Shown in pieces: positions 1 through 13,910 of a stretch of 64,000 bases of DNA; positions within the stretch are counted from its first letter, which is position 1; every line of letters begins with the position of its first letter. Position numbers and translations under genes: made by a program. Source of the stretch: Microbulbifer sp. YPW16 (GTDB lineage Bacteria; Pseudomonadota; Gammaproteobacteria; Pseudomonadales; Cellvibrionaceae); assembly GCF_021290385.1 (NCBI RefSeq), contig NZ_CP089928.1, positions 2,216,501 through 2,280,500 on the forward strand. The letters are read 5' to 3'. The notes under the pieces were generated by a model that worked only from the letters and a program-made list of their open reading frames with translations, did no database searches and was not told where the DNA came from.

Positions 1-888
1 GGCAATCATTACCGACACAATCAGAATCTTTTCAGCGTACTCATATGCTCTTCTTAGCGTTTCATCTCTTTCATCTCGATCTTCAATGACGTTTAATACA
101 AAGCCAAGATTCACGACGGCACTGCTGATTAACTGCCCTTCAGGGTTATGGACTGGGTCCCATCCAGAGCAATCAATTCCATGAGCCTCAAGCTCTCTTA
201 AATCGTCACCTTTTCCGCAACCATAATCGAGAATGCTATATTCACCATCGAGATAGTTATGCCTCGCTAAAATTTGCATTGGTTGAGAGAGCTGATTACG
301 ATCTATTGCTGTCAGATGTCGATCGATTTTTCCTCCGCACTCCGAGCTCTCTAGCGAGTATCGTTTTTCAGATAAGCGGACAAGTCGCCCATCACTATTC
401 AGGGCATAGCCCTTTTTCTTAATAAGTCGTTCCCAGTTTTGCTTGAACCCGATATTCCTAGCGTTTTCATAAAGGCCTACCGACTCACCTTCTCGTGTAA
501 TTTCTTCAAAAACCTTAATAAGAGAATGTGTCTCAGCTACAAAAGCTTCCTTCCGATGCAGAATAGGTGGGTTATCGGATTTGGAGTAGTCGGCCTTTCT
601 TACTGTCAGCCTCTCAAGGTCGATGGTATAGCTTTGATGTAAAGAGGGATAACTGTCACACTCAAATCCTGGGTAGTTTAAAAGAGTAACTTTGAAATCT
701 CGTTTGTTGAATTTTATGACATTCCAGATATCATCTGGAATTTTAAGAGCTCTTGCAATCTTAATTACGACTGAGTGTAATTCGTCGGGCAACGTGCTAA
801 AGGCAGATACATGCACATACACTGCATCAGGAAGCTGTTTTCCCACTTCAATCTGGTGTACTAGATCTCTAAATGTAGGAAAATCCAT
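1..888 (-). CDS. DNA phosphorothioation-associated putative methyltransferase (partial, C-terminus beyond window)
   Basis: Reading the minus strand from the ATG at 888 gives 296 open codons to the left edge. About residue 190 begins HLTAIDRNQLSQP, followed near residue 218 by ILDYGCGKGDD, an S-adenosylmethionine motif I, and then a GWDP and a VVNLGFVLNVIEDRDERDE stretch. This order is the signature of the family named DNA phosphorothioation-associated putative methyltransferase. The N-terminal 180 residues are not recognised. The ATG is 6 bases after the stop of the NERD-kinase gene, so it is the last visible gene of the defence operon. Its target is unknown; by family context it may modify DNA or restrain restriction. 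Family assignment is from motif memory; the catalytic C-terminal part is outside the window. Confidence 0.8.
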   Translation of the reverse strand, partial: MDFPTFRDLVHQIEVGKQLPDAVYVHVSAFSTLPDELHSVVIKIARALKIPDDIWNVIKFNKRDFKVTLLNYPGFECDSYPSLHQSYTIDLERLTVRKADYSKSDNPPILHRKEAFVAETHSLIKVFEEITREGESVGLYENARNIGFKQNWERLIKKKGYALNSDGRLVRLSEKRYSLESSECGGKIDRHLTAIDRNQLSQPMQILARHNYLDGEYSILDYGCGKGDDLRELEAHGIDCSGWDPVHNPEGQLISSAVVNLGFVLNVIEDRDERDETLRRAYEYAEKILIVSVMIA

Positions 889-894
889 GATAAT

Positions 895-3297
895 TCACTT
901 ACCGAATGCTGGTTGACTGTCTTCCCATGCTTGAAGAAAACTATTGGTGAGCCTGATTTTAGCTCCATGCTCTTCAACTACATTTGAGGACTTAAGAGCG
1001 CTGATTGCAGAGCTTACGGATTTCTTATTTGGCTTGTTACCAACGATATCGTTTGCCTTAAGAGTGTTGCGAACAATAACTTGTCTAGACCTTGGTTGCA
1101 TATCGGCTAACATACACTTTAAAACTTTAAGCATGTAGCCCTTATTTATATTCCACTGAATCAAAATTCGCTCGGGAATCTCGAGTTCAAGCCGATCAGA
1201 TATACCAAACCAAGAGCAATAATCCTGAATTCCATCCCAGTTGACATCGCCTCTTAATACCTGATCAAATTTAGATCTAACAACTGCAGGAAAGCTTGAG
1301 CTTGTTTTCATGAGCTGAGGCGTGCAATCAACACTCGGTATATCATCATTTTCAACAAAAGGATGTTGTTTTGATAAAGCCTCAGCAAATGTGACCACTA
1401 GAGAATAAATATCGGAAAAATATGTCCACCCTGATGCTTTAACTGTAGGATCTTTATATCTAGTTGTCCCTATTAACCTACTGTCGAGCATAGATATGTT
1501 AAAATCGATAATACTAGCATTGCCGTGGCTGATAATGATGTTTTCTGGCTTAATATCCTTGTGAATTCTTCCAAGACGATGTAGGTATTGAAGCGCACTC
1601 AATATTTGCCGGAAGTAGTTAAGGAGTTCCCCACTAGAAGAAAATTCAGTCTGATCTAAAGTATCACCTTCAAGGTATTCACAAGTTAAAAAGTATTGAT
1701 CACTGTTATGTATTACATCAAGATCAAATATTCTTACAATGTGTGGGTGGTATAGAACTCTAAGCACCTCAAACTCTTTTCTTGCCAGCTGATCAGCGCC
1801 ATCAAATGTATCTACGACCTTTAAGCAACAAATATACTCACCAAGTAGATGTTTAGCCCTCCAAATTGAAGAAGTACCTCCCCTTCCGATACAATCAATT
1901 AATTCATATTTATCGTTGATTTTGGCACCCGGCCGAAATCGGAACTCTTCGATTTCACTGGATTCATTTGCTTCACTACCAAAGCACTCAATAAAGTCTT
2001 CGAGTTGTGGTCTAACAGACTCATCAATATTACAGGCACCCGAAAGCCATTCAAATGCTTCTGCAATTGATGGATCCAGGTGTGATTTTTCCAGGCAATA
2101 CCTTTCACTCACGAAATCAAGCGTCGAAGCCGAAGCGGGGGGATTACTGGAAATTCTGGGCAAGAAAATATGTGCAAACTGGTAACTCAGAGAACCTGTA
2201 GTGTAGACGCCGCTTTCAATATACTCAGGTGGAAGCCAAGGATTTTCTAGCTGGCCGGCAGTAACGAGAGTTTTGGCTTGTCTTGACCGAGCATACCCGA
2301 CGTCCAGTAACTGAACCTTTCCATCATCAGATAAAAAGATGTTCTCTAAGGAAAGTGCGCGATGATGAATGCCTTTTTTGGACATTTCAATAAGCGCTGA
2401 AGCGACATCTAACATCACCCTTCTTTTATCAAAGTGATCCAATTCCGACAAAGAGTGCCCAACAATATTCTGGTGCACTAAGGCAATAGACTCTCCGTCA
2501 TCGTGATAAGACAATGCCGCAGGGACCGCCGGTAAGTCAGCTAATTCACTTAGCAGATAGAACTCCTTTTTAAGTCGAGCACGTAATTCCGCTATTTTAG
2601 ATGAGCTCTTTCCAGATATATCGACAAACTTCATCCAGTACTGAAAATTAAAAGTATGACCTTCTGGCTCTACCACCCATAGTTCCATGTCATCATCAAT
2701 CGAGAGCAGCTTTTTCTTTGTGTAGTTGCCGACTTTCTGCTCTTGTTCTCTTAGTAGCTTGAAATCACAGATAGCACTTAAAGCGATTTCCTTTTGCGAT
2801 TCTTGCAATTTGTGCTTGTGAAAAGCTGTTACATAATTAGGGGAGGTTAATGCTTGAATAATATTACTTTTATGATAGACAGGCAGACTATTCTCACCTT
2901 TGACTAAAGCAATTTCTCCACCCAATCCGCCCGTAATAAATGCAACACCTTGGCACCAAGGTGCATGTTGATTCTGCCTAAGCTTTAAACGACACCTCGA
3001 TGCTAAGGTTCGCGCGTTTTGATGTAATTTTGGCAGTGGATTTTCAACGCTCCTGCTACCATGAAGCCATACGTCTTTGCCAGCACTTAGCCTACCTTGG
3101 TAGCCTTTTACATCAACTATATATATAGCCCAGTCTCCAACAATGATTGCATCGCACTCAAATGGCTGTCCGTGATCCGAATAGACGTCAACGTTTGCGA
3201 CGATGATATAGTGCTCTGGGAGTTCTTTTTTTAGGAAATCAAAGGCCCACTTTTCAGCATCGTTAGCCGGCTTCCCAACTTGCAGTAGCTTCGCCAT
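895..3297 (-). CDS. NERD nuclease-like domain fused to two protein-kinase domains (PglW-like)
   Basis: An 800-residue protein with no signal peptide or membrane segment. Residues about 10-130 form a NERD domain with acidic positions in FECDAIIVG and IYIVDVKGY, a PD-(D/E)XK-like core. Residues about 210-440 resemble a kinase whose catalytic loop reads HHRALSLEN and whose DFG is DVG, so the HRD aspartate is missing: probably a pseudokinase. Residues about 460-720 form a second kinase with glycine loop GRGGTSS, lysine in CLKVVD, catalytic loop IHKDIKPEN near residue 579 and metal-binding DFN, so it looks active. A winged-helix-like tail follows. NERD plus Ser/Thr kinase is the architecture of PglW in type 2 BREX, though that protein is longer. 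Starts 6 bases after the PLD gene stop, so it is co-translated. Probable role: sensing or signalling in the defence system (inference). Confidence 0.85.
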   Translation of the reverse strand: MAKLLQVGKPANDAEKWAFDFLKKELPEHYIIVANVDVYSDHGQPFECDAIIVGDWAIYIVDVKGYQGRLSAGKDVWLHGSRSVENPLPKLHQNARTLASRCRLKLRQNQHAPWCQGVAFITGGLGGEIALVKGENSLPVYHKSNIIQALTSPNYVTAFHKHKLQESQKEIALSAICDFKLLREQEQKVGNYTKKKLLSIDDDMELWVVEPEGHTFNFQYWMKFVDISGKSSSKIAELRARLKKEFYLLSELADLPAVPAALSYHDDGESIALVHQNIVGHSLSELDHFDKRRVMLDVASALIEMSKKGIHHRALSLENIFLSDDGKVQLLDVGYARSRQAKTLVTAGQLENPWLPPEYIESGVYTTGSLSYQFAHIFLPRISSNPPASASTLDFVSERYCLEKSHLDPSIAEAFEWLSGACNIDESVRPQLEDFIECFGSEANESSEIEEFRFRPGAKINDKYELIDCIGRGGTSSIWRAKHLLGEYICCLKVVDTFDGADQLARKEFEVLRVLYHPHIVRIFDLDVIHNSDQYFLTCEYLEGDTLDQTEFSSSGELLNYFRQILSALQYLHRLGRIHKDIKPENIIISHGNASIIDFNISMLDSRLIGTTRYKDPTVKASGWTYFSDIYSLVVTFAEALSKQHPFVENDDIPSVDCTPQLMKTSSSFPAVVRSKFDQVLRGDVNWDGIQDYCSWFGISDRLELEIPERILIQWNINKGYMLKVLKCMLADMQPRSRQVIVRNTLKANDIVGNKPNKKSVSSAISALKSSNVVEEHGAKIRLTNSFLQAWEDSQPAFGK

Positions 3298-3303
3298 GTA
3301 TTT

Positions 3304-4230
3304 TTATCTCTTTAGGCTTAATACTTGAGAGTAATTTGGCTGGCACACTTCAAAGTCACTATCAAGAAATTCAGCCCATTCAAATAATATTCGGTTGTAT
3401 GTTTTTATATCGATTCTATACGGTTTAGGATCGTCGAGAATGGCTGCGTGCAATCGGGCCGAGACAGCACCAAAGCTCAAACTGTCGTCCCTCACTATAG
3501 AGTGCATCCATCTGTAGAGGCGCTGACGCTTAAATGCACGTCTCAATGAATCTTTGCAAATATCGTCTATGTTGAGACCTAACAGCTCGAAGTCATGTGC
3601 ACACTTCTCGTCATCCAAGTTAAGTGTCAGAAGATCGGAAGGTGTTGTGAATAGAAGCTCTCGGACCCAAAGAAACTTTACAGGTTTCTGGACAATTTCA
3701 TCGATAGCTCTCGACCAATGAACTGAAGTAACCGGCGTTTTATCTTTTTTGGATCTCTGGACCTCATTAGAAATCATTTCATATAATTCGTCAGTCATCC
3801 AAGTGACCTCTGAATTTATGAACTCACTAATTTTTTTCAGATCGGCCTGTTCAGCAGAAATTTTTGTTCCAAATTCGTGGTTTCCGGCCAAGCCAATATG
3901 CAAGCCTTTCTGTGTTAGATTCGCGGAGCCAAGGAAAATATCCGTATCGTCAATGAGAAAAATTTTCCCATGCAAATTGAGGTCAATCCCAAACTTCCAA
4001 CCATATCTTTTACATAGTGCATAAACGTCCAAGTCGGATGCGCCAGAAAGTAGATCATGCTTTTGCCATCTAGCGATAACTTCAACATCCTTGTCATTAA
4101 GTTTCGCTGTGAACCTATCGTCATGCAGTGCCATTAATTTGATAAAGGCACTACAAACCTTAAATGATTTATGGCAACTGGAAATCGACTTGAATAACTG
4201 CTCTGCAAATTGGGAACTGTCTAGAAGCAT
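3304..4230 (-). CDS. Phospholipase D-like domain protein (putative nuclease)
   Basis: A 308-residue cytoplasmic protein. It has one clear HKD motif near residues 84-92, reading LHGKIFLIDD, followed by GSANLT, the usual pattern of PLD-superfamily nucleases. A single HKD motif means an active site would need a dimer. The N-terminal part (SFKVCSAFIKL) fits the start of a PLD fold. The C-terminal 150 residues are unrecognised and helical. Similar single-HKD proteins occur in defence clusters (DrmC in DISARM is one). It sits 11 bases downstream of the GHKL ATPase gene and 6 bases upstream of the NERD-kinase gene. Likely the DNA-cleaving effector of the operon, by inference from motif and context. 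Confidence 0.85.
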   Translation of the reverse strand: MLLDSSQFAEQLFKSISSCHKSFKVCSAFIKLMALHDDRFTAKLNDKDVEVIARWQKHDLLSGASDLDVYALCKRYGWKFGIDLNLHGKIFLIDDTDIFLGSANLTQKGLHIGLAGNHEFGTKISAEQADLKKISEFINSEVTWMTDELYEMISNEVQRSKKDKTPVTSVHWSRAIDEIVQKPVKFLWVRELLFTTPSDLLTLNLDDEKCAHDFELLGLNIDDICKDSLRRAFKRQRLYRWMHSIVRDDSLSFGAVSARLHAAILDDPKPYRIDIKTYNRILFEWAEFLDSDFEVCQPNYSQVLSLKR

Positions 4231-4241
4231 GGATTACTTCC

Positions 4242-6038
4242 TTAGACATCTTCGCCATCACTACCCAAATAATCATCTAACAGCTGGCCCCAGTCCCTTC
4301 TAGCCATTTGCAACTGTTCAAGCCGCCTTTGACTAGTACACTCTCTTTCCATACGCGCCCAACCGGCCAAACAAATTTCAAGGGCCTCTTTTTGGCTGTC
4401 CGGAATTTTTTTAAGTATTTGGGTTGAAAATACATGGTTAGAATTAATTTGCAGGAGCGTCCAACCTTTCTTAGTCGACACATCGAAGAAGGCGTTGGTT
4501 GCCATCGGGACTTCTTCCACCCAAACCTGAAGCTGACGATCTAAGATGGTCTTCGCCTTTTCCTGGGCATTTTCGGCGCCGATTCCTTGGAGTTCTCTCT
4601 CAATTTCTTCTTTGGTAATTGAAGGGGACTCAGTTGGGTGCTTTTCTTCGCGTTCTTTATGCTTAATATTCACCGCAGCCGTTACTGGATTGACCCCTCC
4701 TCGCTCATGCTCCTCAGATCCTTGCGGACCGCTAGCAGCACCTTTGAAATCATATGCTCGAATTCGATTAATAAGTTTGGTCTCGACTTCCTTAATATGC
4801 CGTACGATTTCATAGATTCTCAGCTTGGGATCATTATTCGCACGAAGATCTGAGTAATAATCCTGCTCAGAATCAAAGCCTTCCCTTTCATAATCTTCTG
4901 ACGCTTTCATTGGCCTTAGATTGACCACATGTTGCTTATTGTTAGTCACGCCAAAAATGTTATCGAGAGAGGGGCTAAACTCCACTTGAATACCATAAAA
5001 TCTTGCCCAACCCTTATCTTTCGCCTCAGGCTTAATAAATTCGGCAGTTAATGCAAGTTCTCGACCGGATCGAACAACTGAAAGCCCCATGTTCTTGGCA
5101 GCATGCTTACCCCAAGGCGTGTGGCCAACGGTCTTAGTAGTTGTCTTTCTGATTTCGTCAAGTACTGATTTTTTTAGAACTGTGCCGGTAATCTTCACAG
5201 CTTGTTTTCTGCCGTGCTCATCAGCAATATTAAACTCGTATTGGCAGTCGTTACACAGCTCAAACATCGTTTCCCCCTTAAAATCCCCAGGGAGCTCTGG
5301 AAGTGAGGTGTTCTTCATTAGATATAGAGGATCATTGGCTGAAAACTTATGTTCTTCACTAACGATATAGATTGATCCATTTGACTCCGTTGATTTGAAG
5401 CGAATCGAAACCTTTTCAGAGCTGAGGAAGTTACGATACATACGGCCAACAATATCTTGTGTATGCTTAAAAATTGACTTCCCGGTCTTCCACTGGCATC
5501 TATCGATTTTGCTCCATAAAACCAGCGTTCCAGAATTAGGAAGCGATTCACCACAAGCGCCTAAAAGGTCGTCAGGTATTGCTTTCTTTACTGGCTCGGG
5601 GATAGTTTCAAGTTGTCCGTCTTTGATTTCATCGATATCAAGATACGTATAGTATATTTCACCTGGTCTCTCCCAGCTCCATACATCAACATGCTTGCAT
5701 TGAGAGATAGAGGAGTTCGGAAGGCCCATGCCAAACTTGCCAATACCTAGACTATCCTTTCTATTTTCAGATGCGCCGAACTCCAATGCCAGGTGAAGTG
5801 TCTCTGGAGACATGCCGCGACCATTATCTAACACCCCAATTTTTTCAATTCTTTTAGTAGCCCTCTCGCCATTGCCTCTAGCATCCTTCTTTATTTCAAA
5901 AGTTATAAGTTCAACCCTATCCGCTCCTGCTTGGATACTATTATCCATCAGCTCCGCGAGGGCGTGAGCAGCACTCAGAAATCCGTTATCTCGCATTGAA
6001 TCAATGGCGACTTGTCCCCTAATAAATGGTCTACTCAT
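4242..6038 (-). CDS. GHKL-type ATP-binding protein (MutL/MORC-like)
   Basis: A 598-residue protein with an N-terminal GHKL (HSP90/MutL/histidine kinase-type) ATPase domain. The N box ELMDNS lies near residue 30, the G1 box DNGRGM near 72 and the G2 box GIGKFGMGLP near 98. All key residues (Glu and Asn of the N box, Asp of G1) are present. No histidine phosphoacceptor domain or membrane segment is visible, so it is not a sensor kinase; MORC-like and MutL-like ATP-driven clamps are the closest relatives. The C-terminal half is charged and probably coiled coil. It starts 20 bases after the helicase stop. In phosphorothioation-linked defence operons such ATPases belong to the restriction side; the mechanism is not known to me. 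Confidence 0.85.
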   Translation of the reverse strand: MSRPFIRGQVAIDSMRDNGFLSAAHALAELMDNSIQAGADRVELITFEIKKDARGNGERATKRIEKIGVLDNGRGMSPETLHLALEFGASENRKDSLGIGKFGMGLPNSSISQCKHVDVWSWERPGEIYYTYLDIDEIKDGQLETIPEPVKKAIPDDLLGACGESLPNSGTLVLWSKIDRCQWKTGKSIFKHTQDIVGRMYRNFLSSEKVSIRFKSTESNGSIYIVSEEHKFSANDPLYLMKNTSLPELPGDFKGETMFELCNDCQYEFNIADEHGRKQAVKITGTVLKKSVLDEIRKTTTKTVGHTPWGKHAAKNMGLSVVRSGRELALTAEFIKPEAKDKGWARFYGIQVEFSPSLDNIFGVTNNKQHVVNLRPMKASEDYEREGFDSEQDYYSDLRANNDPKLRIYEIVRHIKEVETKLINRIRAYDFKGAASGPQGSEEHERGGVNPVTAAVNIKHKEREEKHPTESPSITKEEIERELQGIGAENAQEKAKTILDRQLQVWVEEVPMATNAFFDVSTKKGWTLLQINSNHVFSTQILKKIPDSQKEALEICLAGWARMERECTSQRRLEQLQMARRDWGQLLDDYLGSDGEDV

Positions 6039-6058
6039 AACTTAATTCTCTATTTTTG

Positions 6059-7714
6059 TTAAACTTCGTTCCAAAGGCGATCCCAGTGGGTAAATGCCTG
6101 CGCTACACTAGTGAATGCTGGTATATCATCCCTCACAGTATAAATATTACATTCCTTGTTCCCCCCGCTCCGCTGACCGCGCATCGCACGCCCGGCCATT
6201 TGAGAGTATTGAACGAGAGAATCTGTCGGCCTTGCGATAACTGCTACATTTGTAATTGGAGCATCAAAGCCTGCTGTAAGAATATTATAGTTAATTAAAA
6301 CTCGGACATTCCCATTTGAGTAATTGGAAATCTTATACCTTCGAGTTTCATCATTATCATACTTGCTATCAAGTGAATATGCTTTGACTCCACTAAATGC
6401 AAGCATAGAAGCTAGGGCTATAGAATGTTCGACGCTACAGGCAAAAACAATTATTGAGCTCCCCGCTTCGTACTCTTGCTTAATGACTTCTAGTAATTTT
6501 AAGTTCCTGTTTTCATCCTCAGAGAGCGCCTGTCTAATTTCATTACTACGCTTTTGGTTAGAGAACTCTTCAGCCAAAAGTATTTTTTTGCCGTTATATT
6601 CAATGTTCTTAAAGTTGGCCTTCGCTAAATATTTTTCCTCAACCAGGTATTTTATTGGTGATTCATACCCTGCGACCTGCATAGTGATCTTGTTGCCATG
6701 GAAAAAGCTCGTCAACTTTTCATCTTCATCACTATTATGCTCTAGCTTCCTTCCTGGTGTAGCACTTAAGCCAAGTAAGAAAGTTTTTTTCTTGGCATTA
6801 ATCATATCGCTGACAGTTTTTGCATAAGTAGGAGCAATAGCTTTGTGCGCCTCATCAAAAATGATCAGCGTTACATATTTTCTTAGTTGTTCATATAGTA
6901 TTCTATACTCATCGCTTCCACGAGCAGCGTTAAGCTTCTGTAAACCTGCCACAAGAAAACCGCTATCTATTCCACCTAGGGAGATATTGGTATTAGAATA
7001 ATATGCATATAACTTAGTGTCTCGATTGCCCAAGCTACACCAGGCTTTAGCAAATTCTTCCGAGGCTTGTGAGCAAAGCTCTGATGTGTCGGCCAGCCAT
7101 AATACTAAGCCGTTTTCATTTTCTCTAAGGTGCTCCGCTGCTATATTCATAGCAGTTCTAGTTTTACCTGCACCTGTTGGCAGGTGAAGTAGACATCTAT
7201 GCTCTTTCGATGAAGCAATTACACTATTAACTTTTTTAACCATCCGCTGCTGATACGGATACATGGGATAAGAGCTTTCAATCCTTGAAATTCCCTTAAC
7301 GCTTGATACAGCGGTTAAAGCGAAGTCAGCCGCATCTTGATAGCCAAAAAATGAAATAAAGCGTTCCGGCCATCGATTTGCCAGATGAATAAGGACTTCA
7401 AATTTGTCCAAATCACTGTCTATTGAAATCCCCTTTTCATTAAGAAAAGTATTGATAATGGTTTGGACTTGTTCCTGGCTCATCCGGTCAATCAACTTTT
7501 CGCGCTGATCTTTTTGAGAAACAAGCTCGAATCCGTATAACGTATGAACAGCGCTAATTAAATCCGATTTTTCAACCGGCCGACCTATCAGTTTCTCGTA
7601 TTCGCCGATAATATCCTTGCCAATCAGTGATGACAGCTCACCATAGGAATATGCATTTAGTATCTCAATAATCAAGGTCACATCCTCTTCATCTATAGCG
7701 AGCAAATTAAACAA
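6059..7714 (-). CDS. DEAD/DEAH-box SF2 helicase of a phosphorothioation-linked defence module
   Basis: A 551-residue superfamily 2 helicase/translocase. Walker A LPTGAGKT is near residue 180, the DEAH box IIFDEAHKA near 285, motif III GLSATPGR near 318 and motif VI QMAGRAMRG near 506, so both RecA-like lobes are complete. The first 150 residues form an unrecognised helical domain. The gene overlaps the end of the sspD-like gene by 22 bases, indicating translational coupling. The helicase is followed by the GHKL ATPase and PLD genes, so these three take the position that sspF, sspG and sspH take in reported sspBCD-sspFGH cassettes; I cannot assign the individual letters from sequence alone. 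Confidence 0.87.
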   Translation of the reverse strand: MFNLLAIDEEDVTLIIEILNAYSYGELSSLIGKDIIGEYEKLIGRPVEKSDLISAVHTLYGFELVSQKDQREKLIDRMSQEQVQTIINTFLNEKGISIDSDLDKFEVLIHLANRWPERFISFFGYQDAADFALTAVSSVKGISRIESSYPMYPYQQRMVKKVNSVIASSKEHRCLLHLPTGAGKTRTAMNIAAEHLRENENGLVLWLADTSELCSQASEEFAKAWCSLGNRDTKLYAYYSNTNISLGGIDSGFLVAGLQKLNAARGSDEYRILYEQLRKYVTLIIFDEAHKAIAPTYAKTVSDMINAKKKTFLLGLSATPGRKLEHNSDEDEKLTSFFHGNKITMQVAGYESPIKYLVEEKYLAKANFKNIEYNGKKILLAEEFSNQKRSNEIRQALSEDENRNLKLLEVIKQEYEAGSSIIVFACSVEHSIALASMLAFSGVKAYSLDSKYDNDETRRYKISNYSNGNVRVLINYNILTAGFDAPITNVAVIARPTDSLVQYSQMAGRAMRGQRSGGNKECNIYTVRDDIPAFTSVAQAFTHWDRLWNEV

Positions 7715-8559
7715 GCCTGATCATCGGCGTCATCATCATCAGACTCACGTAAAATATCTTGCCATCTAACAGAAGAAGTCTTAGAACTTGCAATTATCCC
7801 TTGCTCTTTTTCTCTTTTCTCAGCGCGGGCGACTAACTCATCAATGGTACCTTGTGAGGACCATGTATATCCATAGCCCCCGACTGCTACTTCCCCATCT
7901 TGCCAGTCGAACTTCTTGCGCTCACGCTGCTCGAATTCCTTGGCCTTTTCAAACAACTCAGGGTGGTTCCTTTTTAAGCCTAGCCATTCGTCCTGTCGTT
8001 GAAAGAAGCAGAAGTAGCATCCCGACCTTGAGCGCCACTTGTAATATTCGGGTATACCAACGGTATCTTCTAGTATTTGAAAAATATCATCGCGGACAAG
8101 GCCATCATCAATGAAAGGGAATACCGCCTTGATAGATTCTTTCTGGCTAATGTAACCTTCGCGATTTTCATCCGCCCTTATGCCGATATAGCTTATTACA
8201 GGATCGTCTCCAACAAATTCCTCGAATGGCCGGATCTTCATGACACGAGTGCACCAGCGCTGTTTGGCCGATGGCAAATAGCCGTTATGTACTTTCAGCC
8301 AGTGCTCAAAGCTTCTTCCACTATCTAATCGTATAATTTCTTTTCCGAGAAAAGACTCTAGTCGATCGAGAAAATCATAAATCTCCTGTAGTTCAGCGCC
8401 AGTGTCAGTAAAAAAGTATTCGACTTTTTCGTGGATTTTTGGATAGCGTAGCTTTATGTGAATTGCTAGTGCGGCACTATCTTTCCCGCCGGATATGCCC
8501 AGTACGTGTCTAGAGCCATTAACCGCTGCGGCCTCTTTTATCGACATCTTTTCAGCCAT
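7693..8559 (-). CDS. sspD: SspD-like PAPS-reductase/PP-loop ATP pyrophosphatase (DNA phosphorothioation)
   Basis: A 288-residue PP-loop enzyme with ISGGKDSAALAI near residues 22-33. This motif adenylates a substrate; in DndC and SspD it is thought to activate the DNA backbone phosphate before sulfur insertion. Cysteines in CTRVMK (near 112) and SGCYFCFF (near 180) could carry sulfur or a metal cluster. The length fits SspD, which is much shorter than DndC. Overlaps the sspC-like gene by 8 bases and the helicase gene by 22 bases. A plain sulfate-assimilation PAPS reductase is excluded by the neighbours (DUF4007 and large P-loop ATPase). The symbol rests on family and context, not on a database match. 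Confidence 0.82.
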   Translation of the reverse strand: MAEKMSIKEAAAVNGSRHVLGISGGKDSAALAIHIKLRYPKIHEKVEYFFTDTGAELQEIYDFLDRLESFLGKEIIRLDSGRSFEHWLKVHNGYLPSAKQRWCTRVMKIRPFEEFVGDDPVISYIGIRADENREGYISQKESIKAVFPFIDDGLVRDDIFQILEDTVGIPEYYKWRSRSGCYFCFFQRQDEWLGLKRNHPELFEKAKEFEQRERKKFDWQDGEVAVGGYGYTWSSQGTIDELVARAEKREKEQGIIASSKTSSVRWQDILRESDDDDADDQACLICSL

Positions 8560-11500
8560 TACGTACCCTCGTTAGATTTCTCTTCCTCGCCTTGCTACCT
8601 TTATTTTGAGTGGCAAATTGTCTTTCATTTAGGAATTCGTCGACTAACTCCGCAAGTGCCGCGAGCTGTAGCTCACTGTCATTATGCGATTGCAAGGTTT
8701 TCTTAAGTAAATTCTTTACGCCCTGAATCGCTTCATGTCGCGCTTGGTCAATCGCTACTACCTCGTCGATCGGCTCCTGGCCTTTTTTAAGAGTTTTGAG
8801 CAAAATAACATCAAAGTCACCTTCGAGCTTTTCTGCGGATCGATCATAATGCAGCCGTAAGGTCTCTAGATCTAAAATTCGCTTAGCAAAGTCACTCAAC
8901 TTGACATCTGCCTCACCCACGTCTGTGTCGGTCCACTTAGCGGATGGCTTTCTGCCTAAAAACATGAGGATGTTTTCTAACCAAGAGGCGTCATCCCCCT
9001 CCCGTTTAGTCAGCCGTTTTATGAAGGCCCGAAGTCCATCAATGTCAACTGTATGCTGGTCAAGCCCCTCATAGCGCCCGATTGCTTTTCTTCGAAGGTC
9101 CGAAAGATTCTGCCCTTCATCCATATGAAGGGCTTTTGATAAGTTACGAACTTGCTTTTCCAGCATCTTGGGATACGCCGACTTTAGCTCTTGCAGGCAT
9201 TCCTGTAGAGATGCTGCCATACCCTCCAAATTAGGTTCTTTTTGCTTTAGTTCGCTCTCGTACCCTAGGGCCTTTGGCAGGCCTTCAAATAGCAAGTTCT
9301 CCGGCGATTTAGCTAGCTGGAAGGCCCCCCTCACTCGCTTGGACTTCTCACTTATATCGGGACTATTGGTTTTCTGTGTATATGGTTCTAGGGCACCCAT
9401 CCAACTTGCTAGTGGTCTAACGAGCTGGATAACTGTTCTCTTTGCCTGGTCGCCACCCTGGATGACCTTGCAGTACTCTTCATAGATAGAAGCTCGTAGG
9501 CCAGAGATCCTAAACCGCTGGACTGTAAACTCGTCAGGGCGTTTAACAAACCGCTCTACCATCTCTTCCGTAAAAAACGGACGGTAGCGCCGCTCTTCGT
9601 ATAAGGCAAGTTCATGCTGATAAACTACATAAACCGCCATATACAAGATTGGCAACACACCAGCTTTAACGCCATAGGGTGGCGCTATCAACTCCTGATT
9701 AAGTTCAGCAAACGATTTTGGCGCTTTTTCTGTTTGGTCTAAGAAATCCTCTATCCGCTGCCAAACTGGGTATAAGGTCGAAGTTTTCGGCGGTACACAG
9801 AAATTCAATGTTCTCTGGCAGTGGATTCCTGTCTCTCGCAATATTGAGCGGTAGATGGCTTTTTCCGGCGGAAACTTGCGTATACCCAAGTCGACTTGGT
9901 CGGCGTGGTTCAGCATCGCCACCATAAGTTTGTTTCGAGCTGCGTTTGCCTGGGAAGATGGCCGATCGCGATTAATCAATTCATTGTGCAAAAATGGCGA
10001 TTTGTTATATGCATTAGCAAGAACGTATGATACAGCCTCTTGAAACTCTCGCTTGCTTGAGACCGTAAGCTGTTTGCCCGCGTGATACCATAATGCTTGT
10101 TCTGGCCGATCTAACAGGTCCTGTAACAAGACAGACTGTGCACTTTCGGCAGCTGTGAGCCGATCCTCAAATTCCCTCTTAGCGACAGGGTCGGTATTTA
10201 ATTCCTGTCGATTAATCTGGACTTGTCTTAACGCAAGTACTTCGGCTGTTGCTTCTCGCAGCTGGCTCCCATTAAGGCAGAGTGAGGTGATGTCCAAGAT
10301 CGAATAGTAGTTTGCGATATCACTCAGAAAATATTTTTCATCATCTTGTGCGGCAGCTAAGTAGAATAAGATTCTAGGTTGCTCTGCTTGAACTTCAGAT
10401 CTTTTGTAAGTCTGGGCGTCAATGAACTCGGGGAAGAAATAGCGTAAGGCGCCACTTCGGATTGTGTACTTTCTCGCCACTATAGGCATTAGCGCTTTTT
10501 CTTTATTCAGCTGTTCCGCGAGCGAGAACTCACCCAGGTTATTTAATTCCTCCTCAACGGCAGCTTCTAAATCAAAATCACTTCCCTGCCACACTCGATA
10601 TTCGTTGCTAAATTTTCGATATGTGATAATTGATTTTTCAACAAGCGGCTTAATCCCGACTCTTTTGAGGGAGCTAGAACAGCTTTGCAGGATCGATTTC
10701 GAAGCTTTAAATCCGCCTTTTGCGCCAACAATGTTTAATATGCCAATTGTCTTCAACATATTAATCTGATATTCAGGTGCGTCCCCAAGCCGTTCTATAG
10801 AAGTTACTACTTCAGCCCAACGTCGGTGAGTGGTGTAGTCTCCAAGAGCCGCCGGCTGATTGGTAATGAAGTAATCATAGATGTGATGGGGATATATCCA
10901 GCCATCGACATTATCAATACGGCTCAGCATATCCTGCAGGCCGTGCTCTTCGTGACTCCCCAGATAACTAAACAAGGTCCGTTCGTTTTGCGCGACCTTT
11001 TGGCACAAAACCGGCAAGAGAATCGCGCTGACTGGGTGTAACGGATAGCAGCTTTTAAAAAGCTCCGTGGCGGACGCTTCATCTAAAACGCCCGGTAGCG
11101 CGTCCTCAGCATTCAAGGCTCCAACCACCGCTTTTGTGTAATTGGTGATTACTTGATCTTCTTTTTTTGAAAAATTCTGAGAAAATGCAGCGCTAACAAT
11201 TCTTAGCGTCTGTTCGCTCGATTCTAAGAAGGGGACTTCCTCAAAGCGGCCCTGAACTTTAGACCACTCATTTTTAAGGCTCTCTCCAAGCCCCTTTGCA
11301 TACTGGTCAAATGATTGATGCAAGAGCACAAAGAGGAATAGCTTACTCTCCCCTTGCTCACAGGCGTGCTCGGCCAAGGCCTGGAGAAGGTAAATATCGT
11401 TAGCGCCATAGTGGCGTGCTTCATACTCTAGAAACTTCCCTAGCTCATCAATAACTAGGAATATTCCGTTACTGCTTGCTTTTAGTAAGGCAACTTGTAA

Positions 11501-12031
11501 CTTCTTGACAAGAGCTATTACAGTCGTTGTCGATACACCAGGCTTCTCACTTTCCTCTTTCAGTAATTTAATAACTCTGGGCTTGGCGCCAGCCTGTGCA
11601 GACCAAAACTTTTCTGCAGCGACAAGCATACCTTTGACTATCTTATTCGCCATCGGCTCTGGCGAACCCGTGATCAGGACTTTTAAATACCCTCTTGTAC
11701 CTTTGACTTCCTTCGCGAACAACTTTGAAAGTTCAGGCGCGACGGATTTTAGGGTATTAACAGCAGCTTTTGTCGTCTTTTCAGTGGGGTCGGACAAAAG
11801 GTGGGCAGAAAACCCCTGACATGAGGACTTACCGGAACCATATGGACCAACTACCGACCAGGCCCTTGGAGCCTGCTCATATGAAAAGCCCTCGGCGATA
11901 CGGCGAAACAAGCTTAGAGAGCGAGAGGTCGGAATATAGGATTTAACGACATCCAACGAGTCTGCGTCACGCTCTAGATTAATAGAGCGAGTATAGTGCG
12001 TATTAACTTTTACTTTTTCTAGTAGACTCAT
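8552..12031 (-). CDS. sspC: SspC-like large P-loop ATPase (DNA phosphorothioation)
   Basis: A 1159-residue protein with a Walker A GPYGSGKSS near residues 62-70 and a Walker B FLVIDELGKF near 190. No helicase motifs, membrane segments or methylase motifs are seen; the rest is a long helical protein resembling the ATPase partners found in Ssp (SspC) and BREX type 2 (PglY) clusters. Its placement between a DUF4007 gene and a PP-loop pyrophosphatase gene is the sspB-sspC-sspD order, which decides the call. The start codon overlaps the stop of the sspB-like gene by 4 bases (ATGA), so the two are translationally coupled. It is expected to power assembly or movement of the sulfur-inserting complex on DNA; that role is inferred. 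Confidence 0.82.
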   Translation of the reverse strand: MSLLEKVKVNTHYTRSINLERDADSLDVVKSYIPTSRSLSLFRRIAEGFSYEQAPRAWSVVGPYGSGKSSCQGFSAHLLSDPTEKTTKAAVNTLKSVAPELSKLFAKEVKGTRGYLKVLITGSPEPMANKIVKGMLVAAEKFWSAQAGAKPRVIKLLKEESEKPGVSTTTVIALVKKLQVALLKASSNGIFLVIDELGKFLEYEARHYGANDIYLLQALAEHACEQGESKLFLFVLLHQSFDQYAKGLGESLKNEWSKVQGRFEEVPFLESSEQTLRIVSAAFSQNFSKKEDQVITNYTKAVVGALNAEDALPGVLDEASATELFKSCYPLHPVSAILLPVLCQKVAQNERTLFSYLGSHEEHGLQDMLSRIDNVDGWIYPHHIYDYFITNQPAALGDYTTHRRWAEVVTSIERLGDAPEYQINMLKTIGILNIVGAKGGFKASKSILQSCSSSLKRVGIKPLVEKSIITYRKFSNEYRVWQGSDFDLEAAVEEELNNLGEFSLAEQLNKEKALMPIVARKYTIRSGALRYFFPEFIDAQTYKRSEVQAEQPRILFYLAAAQDDEKYFLSDIANYYSILDITSLCLNGSQLREATAEVLALRQVQINRQELNTDPVAKREFEDRLTAAESAQSVLLQDLLDRPEQALWYHAGKQLTVSSKREFQEAVSYVLANAYNKSPFLHNELINRDRPSSQANAARNKLMVAMLNHADQVDLGIRKFPPEKAIYRSILRETGIHCQRTLNFCVPPKTSTLYPVWQRIEDFLDQTEKAPKSFAELNQELIAPPYGVKAGVLPILYMAVYVVYQHELALYEERRYRPFFTEEMVERFVKRPDEFTVQRFRISGLRASIYEEYCKVIQGGDQAKRTVIQLVRPLASWMGALEPYTQKTNSPDISEKSKRVRGAFQLAKSPENLLFEGLPKALGYESELKQKEPNLEGMAASLQECLQELKSAYPKMLEKQVRNLSKALHMDEGQNLSDLRRKAIGRYEGLDQHTVDIDGLRAFIKRLTKREGDDASWLENILMFLGRKPSAKWTDTDVGEADVKLSDFAKRILDLETLRLHYDRSAEKLEGDFDVILLKTLKKGQEPIDEVVAIDQARHEAIQGVKNLLKKTLQSHNDSELQLAALAELVDEFLNERQFATQNKGSKARKRNLTRVRNG

Positions 12032-12957
12032 GCGACCCTCTCTTGCTGAGATTGCGCGTAGTGTTTCTTAATTAAATCCATTGCATCAATGCTCTCGGAC
12101 ATATATAGCTGATGCTGGCCGGCTGTATCGCGAATCTCAAAAACTCCGGGAATAAATACCGTCAACTCTTCTAACTTTGTAACCAGGGAAGCTTCCGTTA
12201 ACCTAAATACGGATCCGGGCGCAACATACTCATCACGGCTGTACATCAAGTCTTCGATAGGAACAACGGTGGTTTTTTTGGCTTCAAGCAACTGGCAGAT
12301 CGCAAACCCAAGGACTCCCACAGGCAGTTCGGGGCGCGCCATGGGACGAGACTGGTAACTACGTCCGCCAGCAGACTGTGTTACTAGCTTCAATAATGCA
12401 AATGGGGAATCCAAAGCATCTTCTAGTGGGGTTCGGGTATTCCCTTTGGATTGCGTATACATCCTGGTAAGCAATCCAGCATCATTTTTTATCGTCGTTG
12501 CCGCGGGCTTCTTTTTAGCAATGACTTGATCATGCACGAAGTCGACTAAGGCAGTCGCCAACTCTTGTCCGGTAAATTCAGGCTTATGAAAACGATTGAA
12601 GAACCAATACCATGATGTAGCGAGTCCGGTATTGCTCACTAACAACCAATGCAATAGCCAAACAGTAGCTTCATCTTCTAAATAGGGGTCGAATCCGTTT
12701 TCACTTAGCAGAGCGACACCCAATTCTGTCGGCGCTCCAGAAACAGCATCGGTCATTCCACAGGCACGTAGCCAATACCGTATGGAGGTGACCATGTTCT
12801 TGCCAACACCGAGAACTACGGTCGCATCATCGTCTTCGAATACCTTGGCACCCTTTTTGCTGCTTAGAATAGCGTTGAAACCCTTGGACAGCCAACCATA
12901 TCTCAGAGCAAAGGTTTCATGACGTCCAAAAGCCATACTGTCGACATTAAATTTCAC
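12028..12957 (-). CDS. sspB: SspB-like DUF4007 protein (putative DNA-nicking component of phosphorothioation)
   Basis: A 309-residue protein opening with FGRHETFALRYGWLSKGF and followed by DDDATVVLGVGKNMV and SIRYWL, the hallmark N-terminus of DUF4007. In single-strand phosphorothioation systems SspB is reported as the DNA-nicking component; I associate DUF4007 with SspB from memory of the family. No cysteine desulfurase (SspA) gene is visible upstream, so sulfur must come from a gene elsewhere, as in many sspBCD cassettes. It overlaps the regulator gene upstream by 11 bases and the sspC-like gene downstream by 4. Cytoplasmic, no signal peptide. Confidence 0.8.
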   Translation of the reverse strand: MKFNVDSMAFGRHETFALRYGWLSKGFNAILSSKKGAKVFEDDDATVVLGVGKNMVTSIRYWLRACGMTDAVSGAPTELGVALLSENGFDPYLEDEATVWLLHWLLVSNTGLATSWYWFFNRFHKPEFTGQELATALVDFVHDQVIAKKKPAATTIKNDAGLLTRMYTQSKGNTRTPLEDALDSPFALLKLVTQSAGGRSYQSRPMARPELPVGVLGFAICQLLEAKKTTVVPIEDLMYSRDEYVAPGSVFRLTEASLVTKLEELTVFIPGVFEIRDTAGQHQLYMSESIDAMDLIKKHYAQSQQERVA

Positions 12958-13162
12958 GATTGGTACCTTTTAAATTCTCTCTCATACGCGTTTCGGCACT
13001 ATCTTGCCCCGCCCGCCCGGACAAAAAATGGTCCACATTTTCTAAAAACCAAGACTTCAAATTGACACCGTCTTCTCGTAATGCGCTATGGAGTTTTTGC
13101 TTTAGATCCGGCTCAATCTCTATGACGATGCGGCCGCTACTGCCTATGCTCATTTTTTGCAC
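12947..13162 (-). CDS. Ribbon-helix-helix (CopG/Arc-type) regulator, first gene of the defence operon
   Basis: A 71-residue protein. Residues 10-30 read GRIVIEIEPDLKQKLHSALR, a beta strand followed by a helix as in ribbon-helix-helix DNA-binding proteins, then DGVNLKSWFLE for the second helix. The annotated start is a GTG at 13162; an in-frame ATG at 13153 is an equally good start and neither has a strong Shine-Dalgarno sequence. Overlaps the sspB-like gene by 11 bases. A perfect inverted repeat lies just upstream at 13170-13182 and could be its operator. Proposed autoregulator of the phosphorothioation operon; alternatively an accessory DNA-binding subunit. Confidence 0.72.
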   Translation of the reverse strand: MQKMSIGSSGRIVIEIEPDLKQKLHSALREDGVNLKSWFLENVDHFLSGRAGQDSAETRMRENLKGTNREI

Positions 13163-13169
13163 ACCAATG

Positions 13170-13182
13170 TTATGTTACATAA
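13170..13182 (-). promoter_or_regulatory. Inverted repeat, candidate operator of the RHH regulator
   Basis: TTATGT-T-ACATAA is a perfect inverted repeat with 6-base arms and one central base. It begins 8 bases upstream of the GTG start of the RHH gene and lies between that start and the LexA-like box, where repressor binding would block transcription or initiation. Binding by the RHH protein is inferred from position only. Confidence 0.4.
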
Positions 13183-13207
13183 ACTGAACGATACGCGAGC
13201 TCGCAGC

Positions 13208-13227
13208 GGCTGTCTATATATACAGTA
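13208..13227 (-). promoter_or_regulatory. LexA (SOS) box upstream of the defence operon
   Basis: On the minus strand the 20 bases read TACTGTATATATAGACAGCC, matching 17 of 20 positions of the E. coli LexA consensus and keeping both CTGT and ACAG half-sites with the 8-base spacer. The box lies 46 bases upstream of the first start codon of the phosphorothioation operon, and no plus-strand gene starts within 680 bases, so the operon is the only plausible target. The TATATA core could overlap the -10 element; no convincing -35 is seen. Confidence 0.7.
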
Positions 13228-13910
13228 AGGTGCTGCAAGTGATGTATGTAGAGCGCCATTTTCGATTGAATTTTGATCGATGGAGTTCTACTAAGGGATA
13301 TAACTTTCCCGTAGGCGACAATGGTTTCGGCCGGCGCTTAGCAGTTTTAGGTCATTAATTGGGGAGATTGGGCTAGGTTGGCCGGGCGTTGGCGATGCCG
13401 ACCGCATCCACACAGGCAATGAGCACTCACTCAACGGTGCCGAGGCACCGGCTTCCACTGGTAACACCAGAGTGGCCAGACTGAGCTTGGCCGCTAGATC
13501 GGTTAAATATTGCTGAGCTATTTCCCTTGCCATGCCTCGTGGATCATGGATCATCACCATAGCCATCGCATCCAGCTCACAGTAATTGGCCCTCAAGCTC
13601 ATAATCGGTCATGTACGGGGAGTGAACCTTTGCGTAAGCAGTTAGTAGGCTGCTCCCCACCTTCTAAGGGAAACGTCGTAACTAAAGGCAGTCCCACATG
13701 AAGATGGTCAATTATCAAACAAAGGGCGCTACTCTATCCTTAAATCAATCTACTCGGAGGAATTATTCTTATTCAGCTCAAATTAAGGTTGAATTCCGTA
13801 ACCTCCACTACAACAGTCTTTCCTACGGCAGCTGCAAAAGCAGCTTTTGGACTGTATAGGCAAATAGCTACGCAAAATTCATTGTTCACTCAACCATTAG
13901 GAGCCTGACT
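13228..13910. other. Junction zone between defence island and core genome, no recognised gene
   Basis: About 680 bases with no gene I can support. A minus-strand frame of 103 codons (13291-13602) has no recognisable motif and weak coding character. Base composition changes across this stretch, from the AT-rich island to the GC-rich right side. The segment around 13,610-13,690 has an imperfect GGGGAG/CTCCCC pairing and might be a remnant of a mobile element. A small hairpin GCTGC-AAAA-GCAGC followed by TTTT lies at 13831-13848. No tRNA or clear attachment repeat is seen. Confidence 0.4.

What the first reader, a model, noticed from the sequence alone, without database searches (positions are those of the whole stretch)
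13208..13227. A LexA box in front of a phosphorothioation defence operon
Seen: 17 of 20 bases match the E. coli LexA consensus, both half-sites intact, 46 bases before the operon's first start codon. Known: LexA boxes repress SOS genes until DNA damage. Inference: the whole system would be switched on by DNA damage or by phage replication intermediates. I am not aware of SOS control being described for Ssp-type systems.
Basis: partly seen in the sequence, partly recalled or inferred. Interest (0 to 1): 0.75.

Follow-up and report, generated by a model that had tools for sequence, protein, structure and literature searches.

The report
DNA-damage switch on a defence operon
A bacterial anti-virus gene cluster that marks DNA with sulphur carries, on its predicted promoter, a docking site for the cell's DNA-damage repressor LexA, and similar sites stand before some relatives of the cluster, which suggests that this immunity is turned up when DNA is damaged.

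Summary
The site is real: GGCTGTCTATATATACAGTA at 13208-13227, 17 of 20 to the E. coli consensus. With a matrix built from seven SOS sites of this genome (window site excluded) it scores 22.5 bits; recA and the two lexA boxes, each left out in turn, score 15.1-21.4; about 0.08 such sites are expected per genome. It covers the -35 of a predicted promoter of an SspBCD operon. In Microbulbifer flavimaris the 16-base core is identical while the 40 bases upstream match at 9 of 40; Sediminihaliea has a box in nearly the same place. Marinomonas foliarum and a family relative have strong boxes before sspB without the leader gene. Of 72 distinct sspB upstream regions 8 reach 16 bits (null 0.6) and 6 reach 20 (null 0.07), so most Ssp loci seen lack the box. 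Eight text searches found no report of SOS control of Ssp systems. LexA binding and induction are untested.

The parts
13208..13227 (.). LexA box, GGCTGTCTATATATACAGTA
13188..13216 (-). predicted sigma-70 promoter, TAGACA-17-TATCGT; the -35 lies inside the LexA box
   Evidence: 9 of 12; 3 sites found in the scanned region, both strands, against 1.3 in shuffles, so weak on its own; similar TAGACA-17-TATGTT read by eye in L041 (sequence)
13166..13186 (-). second palindrome CAGTTTATGTAACATAACATT, putative operator of the RHH-like leader protein
   Evidence: near match 220-283 bases before sspB in the 14 RHH-flagged loci tested, window included
12947..13153 (-). leader gene: 68-aa ribbon-helix-helix-like protein (alternative GTG start at 13162)
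   Evidence: no match at E 0.001 in Pfam, PADLOC or NCBIfam
12028..12957 (-). sspB (DUF4007)
8552..12031 (-). sspC (ATPase)
7693..8559 (-). sspD (PAPS-reductase-type sulfur transferase)
6059..7714 (-). SF2 helicase, RadD/PbeA-like
4242..6038 (-). GHKL ATPase (weak MzaB similarity; 'MORC-like' is my label)
3304..4230 (-). PLD-family nuclease-like protein
895..3297 (-). NERD plus Ser/Thr kinase protein, MAD6/PglW-like
1..888 (-). part of a 635-aa phosphorothioation-associated putative methyltransferase (TIGR04096) that runs out of the window on the left
   Evidence: whole gene read in L080:13481-15388

Best explanation
The site is a working LexA operator. LexA bound at 13208-13227 covers the -35 of the promoter of the RHH-sspBCD-effector operon and keeps it low. 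When RecA filaments form on single-stranded DNA (host damage, or phage or plasmid DNA being replicated or cut), LexA cleaves itself and the operon is derepressed. The RHH-like leader protein probably binds the palindrome at 13166-13186, just downstream of the -10, and caps or gates expression. Shown by computation: the site, its match to this genome's LexA motif, its place over a predicted promoter, its conservation, and the leader gene with its own palindrome. Inferred: LexA binding, induction, autoregulation by the RHH-like protein, and benefit against phage.
For: Matrix from 7 own SOS sites: 22.5 bits, against 15.1-25.8 for those seven left out in turn. Same-motif sites in the own genome stand before lexA, recA, imuA, umuD and recN. 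In three other genomes with ssp boxes the core pattern gives 17 places, control 0; of the 13 whose neighbours I know, two are the ssp sites and the rest include lexA (twice), recA (twice), imuA, a umuD-like, a ruvC-like and two integrase genes (some named by reading the sequence). Core 16 of 16 identical in M. flavimaris, with 9 of 40 identical just upstream; box in nearly the same place in Sediminihaliea, 13 of 16 core, 12 of 40 upstream. Boxes before sspB in M. foliarum (26.7 bits) and G904 (27.5 bits), without the RHH leader. 8 of 72 sspB upstream regions reach 16 bits against 0.6 in the null; 6 of 72 reach 20 against 0.07. Predicted -35 inside the box.
Against: No binding or expression data. 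64 of 72 other sspB upstream regions have no site at 16 bits. Of the 8, three have one imperfect half-site (L132, L088, L104), L132 stands before apparently split sspC and sspD, and L100 lies far out at -441. Relatives lack the box: G013, G030 and G135 of the same family, and L133 and L134 of the family of Sediminihaliea. The M. foliarum site has three core mismatches and is not among the five places found there. Not every strong core match in the own genome lies at a known SOS gene: of 8 places, three are at lexA, recN and imuA, one is the ssp site, two lie by a transposase-like gene, one by an unknown ORF, and one between a glutamate-synthase-like and a radical-SAM-like gene. The promoter call is near the shuffle background.
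Confidence: 0.83

Rival explanations
1. The palindrome is the operator of a local regulator, the RHH-like leader protein or another repressor, and not of LexA.
For: The first gene encodes an RHH-like protein, and such proteins commonly bind palindromes at their own promoters (general knowledge).
Against: RHH-led loci share a different palindrome (AATGTTATGT-N-ACATAACATT): each of the 14 RHH-flagged loci tested has a near match that at most 5 of 200 shuffles reach; of 12 unflagged loci only L055, which has a degenerate leader that the motif search missed, does, and at another place. Most RHH-led loci have no LexA-type box at 16 bits, while the two strongest boxes (L131, L044) stand at loci where no RHH leader was found.
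Confidence: 0.07
2. The site is a chance palindrome without function.
For: Half-sites CTGT-N8-ACAG occur 52 times in the genome against 24 in the control, so many are chance.
Against: Full-matrix expectation 0.08 per genome; control 0 for the core; identical core in M. flavimaris with diverged upstream flank; excess of boxes before sspB.
Confidence: 0.05
3. LexA binds, but the operon is mainly driven by another promoter or held by the RHH repressor, so DNA damage changes its output little.
For: A second conserved palindrome next to the promoter; modification genes may need basal expression to keep host DNA marked (inference).
Against: The only promoter-like site called on this strand in 12900-13910 has its -35 in the box; three loci keep box and RHH palindrome together.
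Confidence: 0.15

Closest known systems
Gammaproteobacterial LexA/SOS regulon (E. coli type)
   Same: CTGT-N8-ACAG with A+T-rich core over a predicted promoter; same motif as this genome's lexA, recA, imuA, umuD and recN sites
   Different: The target is a DNA-modification defence operon and not a repair gene; binding is untested
SspABCD-SspE and SspABCD-SspFGH systems (PMC8092258: abstract, part 1 of 2 of the Results, and passages seen)
   Same: sspB, sspC, sspD in order; no sspA among the operon genes scanned, as in Vibrio anguillarum FF-93, where iscS is used
   Different: Other effector genes (helicase, GHKL, PLD, NERD-kinase, TIGR04096) with no SspE or SspFGH match listed; RHH-like leader; LexA box, whereas that paper has no occurrence of LexA
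LexA-controlled integron integrases
   Same: A mobile-DNA-related gene under a LexA box; two integrase genes with such boxes lie in this genome (L026, L032)
   Different: Integrase and not defence; that control is recalled from the literature, and 'integron-type' is my reading of the sequences
Predicted LexA link to the type I restriction specificity gene hsdS in the gut SOS meta-regulon (PMC3998124, passages seen)
   Same: SOS control predicted for a restriction-modification gene
   Different: Another system; in-vitro validation there used B. subtilis LexA on three other sites, not hsdS

Membership tests
LexA (SOS) operator, gammaproteobacterial type | CTGT-N8-ACAG dyad with A+T-rich core | tested here: met
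LexA (SOS) operator, gammaproteobacterial type | host has LexA and uses this motif at lexA and recA | tested here: met
   (the recA site has one half-site change, CCAG for ACAG)
LexA (SOS) operator, gammaproteobacterial type | overlaps the promoter of the controlled gene | tested here: inconclusive
   one search places a predicted -35 in the box, but the promoter call is near background and no start site is mapped
LexA (SOS) operator, gammaproteobacterial type | conserved at orthologous promoters | tested here: inconclusive
   Met in M. flavimaris and Sediminihaliea, absent in most relatives
LexA (SOS) operator, gammaproteobacterial type | bound by LexA; gene induced by DNA damage | not testable with these tools
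   needs a binding assay and expression data
Ssp phosphorothioation system | sspB, sspC, sspD modification genes | tested here: met
   (SspB 303 bits, SspC 1449 bits, SspD 337 bits)
Ssp phosphorothioation system | SspE or SspFGH restriction effector | tested here: not met
   The four downstream genes list no SspE, F, G or H model (lists capped at 25 rows for the helicase and the kinase); the TIGR04096 gene has no PADLOC match. No search elsewhere in the genome
Ssp phosphorothioation system | cysteine desulfurase (SspA or IscS) | not tested
   none among the operon genes scanned; no genome-wide search was made
Ribbon-helix-helix regulator (leader gene) | beta-alpha-alpha RHH fold and DNA binding | tested here: inconclusive
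   Two helices at high confidence; many of the best-ranked structural matches are RHH proteins, but none has E of 0.001 or less; no strand was called and binding is untested

The most novel reading that the evidence does not exclude
The LexA box makes the phosphorothioation system a self-correcting circuit. When sulphur marks on the host's own DNA become too sparse, the restriction arm nicks host DNA; the damage activates RecA, LexA falls, and the operon makes more SspBCD until the marks are restored. The same loop would raise immunity when invading DNA is cut or replicated. The RHH-like leader would damp the loop. Published work gives the first half: restriction without marks damages DNA (SspFGH) or triggers SOS (DndFGH), as stated in PMC8092258.
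Probability: 0.2. Interest if true: 0.82.

Novelty: new variant of a known kind. Interest (0 to 1): 0.6.

Why it matters
When a cell should express a restriction-modification-like system that can hurt its own DNA is an open matter. A LexA operator on an Ssp operon would tie a backbone-modification defence directly to the cell's DNA-damage sensor and give a simple, testable answer for these lineages. The box stands before SspBCD coupled to different partner genes (helicase-GHKL-PLD in the window and L049; GIY-YIG with a DGQHR protein in L041; SspFG downstream in L044; divergent SspFG in L131), which suggests that damage control can be added to the modification module whatever the effector.

Tried and rejected
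Half-site counting alone was dropped as evidence, since CTGT-N8-ACAG is close to chance in the window and frequent in the genome. The idea that the box is the RHH protein's operator was rejected because RHH-led loci share another palindrome. The idea that the box goes with the helicase-GHKL effector type was dropped: of 11 other loci with both genes, 3 (L049, L088/L148, L100/L149) reach 16 bits and 8 do not. Plasmid and phage collections gave SspB matches below 60% identity (96 and 3 records; 40 and 3 listed) and were not followed for boxes; the leader protein matched one plasmid. A sequence search of solved structures with the leader alignment found nothing usable. A first reading of the flanks from the gapped alignment (3 of 40 identical) counted gap columns as differences and was replaced by an ungapped count.

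Papers. Eight searches bear on SOS or LexA control of Ssp or other defence systems; none showed a report of it for Ssp. Several lists were cut (20 of 7,440, 20 of 24, 20 of 89), and only open-access papers are held. Of the 8 papers holding both phosphorothioation and LexA I saw passages of three (PMC8569181, PMC11931770, PMC12345140); the other five I judged from title and start of abstract. Passages only were also seen of PMC10853773, PMC13192584, PMC3998124, PMC12707154 and PMC12839542. Searches (effectors; a P. aeruginosa LexA gene) were on side questions.

Full report
Site. The 20 bases at 13208-13227 read GGCTGTCTATATATACAGTA, 17 of 20 to the recalled E. coli consensus. Intact half-sites are cheap: one CTGT-N8-ACAG in the window against 0.67 expected, 52 in the genome against 24 for the reversed control. 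The full motif is rare: five places in 4.19 Mb within 3 mismatches of the 20-mer, control 0; eight within 2 mismatches of the 16-base core, control 0, of which this site and one other have a single mismatch.

Comparison with the genome's own SOS sites. lexA has two boxes, recA has one, and boxes stand before a umuD-umuC pair, imuA-imuB (two boxes) and a recN-like gene (umuD, imuA and recN are named from domain hits and my reading of the sequence). A matrix from these seven, window site excluded, gives 22.5 bits for the window site; the seven, each left out in turn, score 15.1 to 25.8 (recA 18.7, lexA 15.1 and 21.4). Expected chance sites at that score, for independent bases of the window's composition: 0.0013 per 64 kb, 0.08 per genome. 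The next best site in the window has 10.7 bits (all). Against it: of the eight core matches in the genome, three are at lexA, recN and imuA and one is the ssp site; two lie near a transposase-like gene, one by an ORF without a family match, and one between a glutamate-synthase-like and a radical-SAM-like gene (transposase and radical SAM are my readings).

Operon. On the minus strand: an RHH-like leader (12947-13153), SspB, SspC, SspD, a RadD/PbeA-like helicase, a GHKL ATPase with weak MzaB similarity, a PLD protein, a NERD plus kinase protein related to MAD6 and PglW, and a TIGR04096 phosphorothioation-associated methyltransferase (604 bits) that runs out of the window. No SspE, F, G or H model is listed for these genes (two lists cut at 25 rows). 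Only one promoter-like site was called on the minus strand in 12900-13910: TAGACA-17-TATCGT at 13216-13188, whose -35 lies inside the box; with 3 sites on both strands against 1.3 in shuffles this is weak evidence on its own.

Conservation. Aligning the window, M. flavimaris (L041) and Sediminihaliea albiluteola (L049) shows two conserved islands upstream of the leader gene, the box and a second palindrome. Without gaps, window against M. flavimaris: 9 of 40 identical upstream of the core, 16 of 16 in the core, 11 of 20 downstream; window against Sediminihaliea: 12 of 40, 13 of 16 and 3 of 20. The box lies 54, 59 and 45 bases before the leader ATG in the three. In the second palindrome the window matches them at 15 and 16 of 19. 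In the M. flavimaris genome the ssp site is one of four with a single core mismatch, the others being at lexA, an integrase gene and a place without a clear gene; in the Sediminihaliea genome it is one of six within two mismatches, with lexA, recA, imuA, a ruvC-like gene and one place not looked at. Marinomonas foliarum (L044) has a 26.7-bit site before sspB, with three core mismatches, and SspF and SspG models matching downstream. A member of its family (G904, L131/L169) has a 27.5-bit site between divergent sspF-sspG and sspBCD homologues.

Survey. sspB loci came from one scan of genome contigs (38 loci) and from searches with an SspB model in 144, 369, 390, 48, 140 and 398 genomes (hits in 5, 11, 15, 3, 4 and 11, centre genomes included, overlapping). 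I scored 480 bp upstream of 80 loci. Left out were the window's own copy (L084), L056 (104 bp upstream) and L109 (second piece of a split match). Eight of the 80 were duplicates, leaving 72. Eight of 72 reach 16 bits (first-order Markov null: mean 0.6, maximum 3 in 60 rounds); six of 72 reach 20 bits (null 0.07, maximum 1). Five of 72 have CTGT-N8-[AC]CAG: L131, L044, L049, L100, L041. Three of the eight have one imperfect half (L132, L088, L104), one of them before apparently split sspC and sspD (L132), and L100 lies at -441. A second control, the rest of the 38 loci, gives 0.2 expected and 3 observed at 16 bits in 450 bp. So the association is above chance, but 64 of 72 lack a site at 16 bits, including G013, G030 and G135 of the window's family and L133 and L134 of the family of Sediminihaliea. 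Relatedness was not corrected for: window and L041 are of one genus, L044, L131 and L132 of one family, which was searched because L044 had a box.

Leader gene. Fourteen leader proteins aligned share S6, G7, R8, K33, W35, F36 and other invariant residues and come from loci labelled with gammaproteobacterial names, Chlorobiota, Anaerolineae, Nitrospirota and Magnetococcales. AlphaFold2 with this alignment gives two confident helices and no strand; many of Foldseek's top hits are RHH proteins (RelB, ParD, MatP, AtaR, CopG, AmrZ, Arc), none with a significant E-value. Each of 14 RHH-flagged loci tested, window included, carries a near match to AATGTTATGT-N-ACATAACATT that at most 5 of 200 single-base shuffles reach. 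Of 12 unflagged loci, L055 (5 of 200, at another place) and L052 (27 of 200) have leader genes that the motif search missed; for the other ten 60 or more shuffles reach it. I read that consensus off L049 and L100, so those two match by construction. This supports an autoregulatory RHH operator distinct from the LexA box.

Effectors. Box-bearing loci carry different partners: helicase-GHKL-PLD in the window and in L049 (which also has an SspE match at 709 bits), a GIY-YIG protein and a DGQHR protein in L041, SspF and SspG in L044. Of 39 distinct other loci compared (41 entries, two repeated), 11 have both the helicase and the GHKL relative, and 8 of these also the PLD relative.

Literature. PMC8092258 (abstract, part 1 of 2 of the Results, passages) says that SspFGH damages DNA in cells without marks and that unrestrained DndFGH triggers SOS, and has no occurrence of LexA. 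PMC3998124 (passages) predicts SOS control of an hsdS gene. PMC12345140 (passages) reports a phage protein that antagonises Dnd and binds the recA and lexA promoters (first half from its title and abstract). I saw no description of SOS control of an Ssp system.

Judgement. A LexA operator is the best reading (0.83). Its effect on expression, the role of the RHH-like protein and any gain against phage are inferences.

Noticed in passing
window 3304-7714; L043, L046, L049/L151, L148, L149, L158, L161, L168: A helicase + GHKL (MORC-like) ATPase + PLD gene set accompanies SspBCD in 8 of 39 distinct other loci compared (helicase and GHKL in 11 of 39) and gave no SspE or SspFGH match in the window; it may be an undescribed Ssp restriction module.
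   Followed up: partly
window 12947-13153; L041, L042, L045, L046, L048-L052, L054, L055, L058, L060, L085, L100: A small RHH-like leader protein heads Ssp operons in several phyla, with its own conserved palindrome in most; the window's copy has no Pfam, PADLOC or NCBIfam match.
   Followed up: partly
L026 and L032 (own genome, about 2077920 and 21786): Two integrase genes, integron-type by my reading, each with a strong LexA-type box (23.4 and 26.7 bits).
   Followed up: no
L116 (own genome, 4091339 and 4091523): Two near-identical LexA-like palindromes 184 bases apart by a transposase-like gene; possibly a repeat and not an SOS site.
   Followed up: no
L151:10584-12902: In Sediminihaliea an SspE match (709 bits) follows helicase-GHKL-PLD on the same strand, so two effector types may share one operon.
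   Followed up: no
L169:8601-8808: In G904 the LexA-type box lies between divergent sspF-sspG and sspBCD homologues and could serve both.
   Followed up: partly
L147:1869-6001: In G908 sspC and sspD relatives read as split ORFs, behind a LexA-like site with one imperfect half.
   Followed up: no
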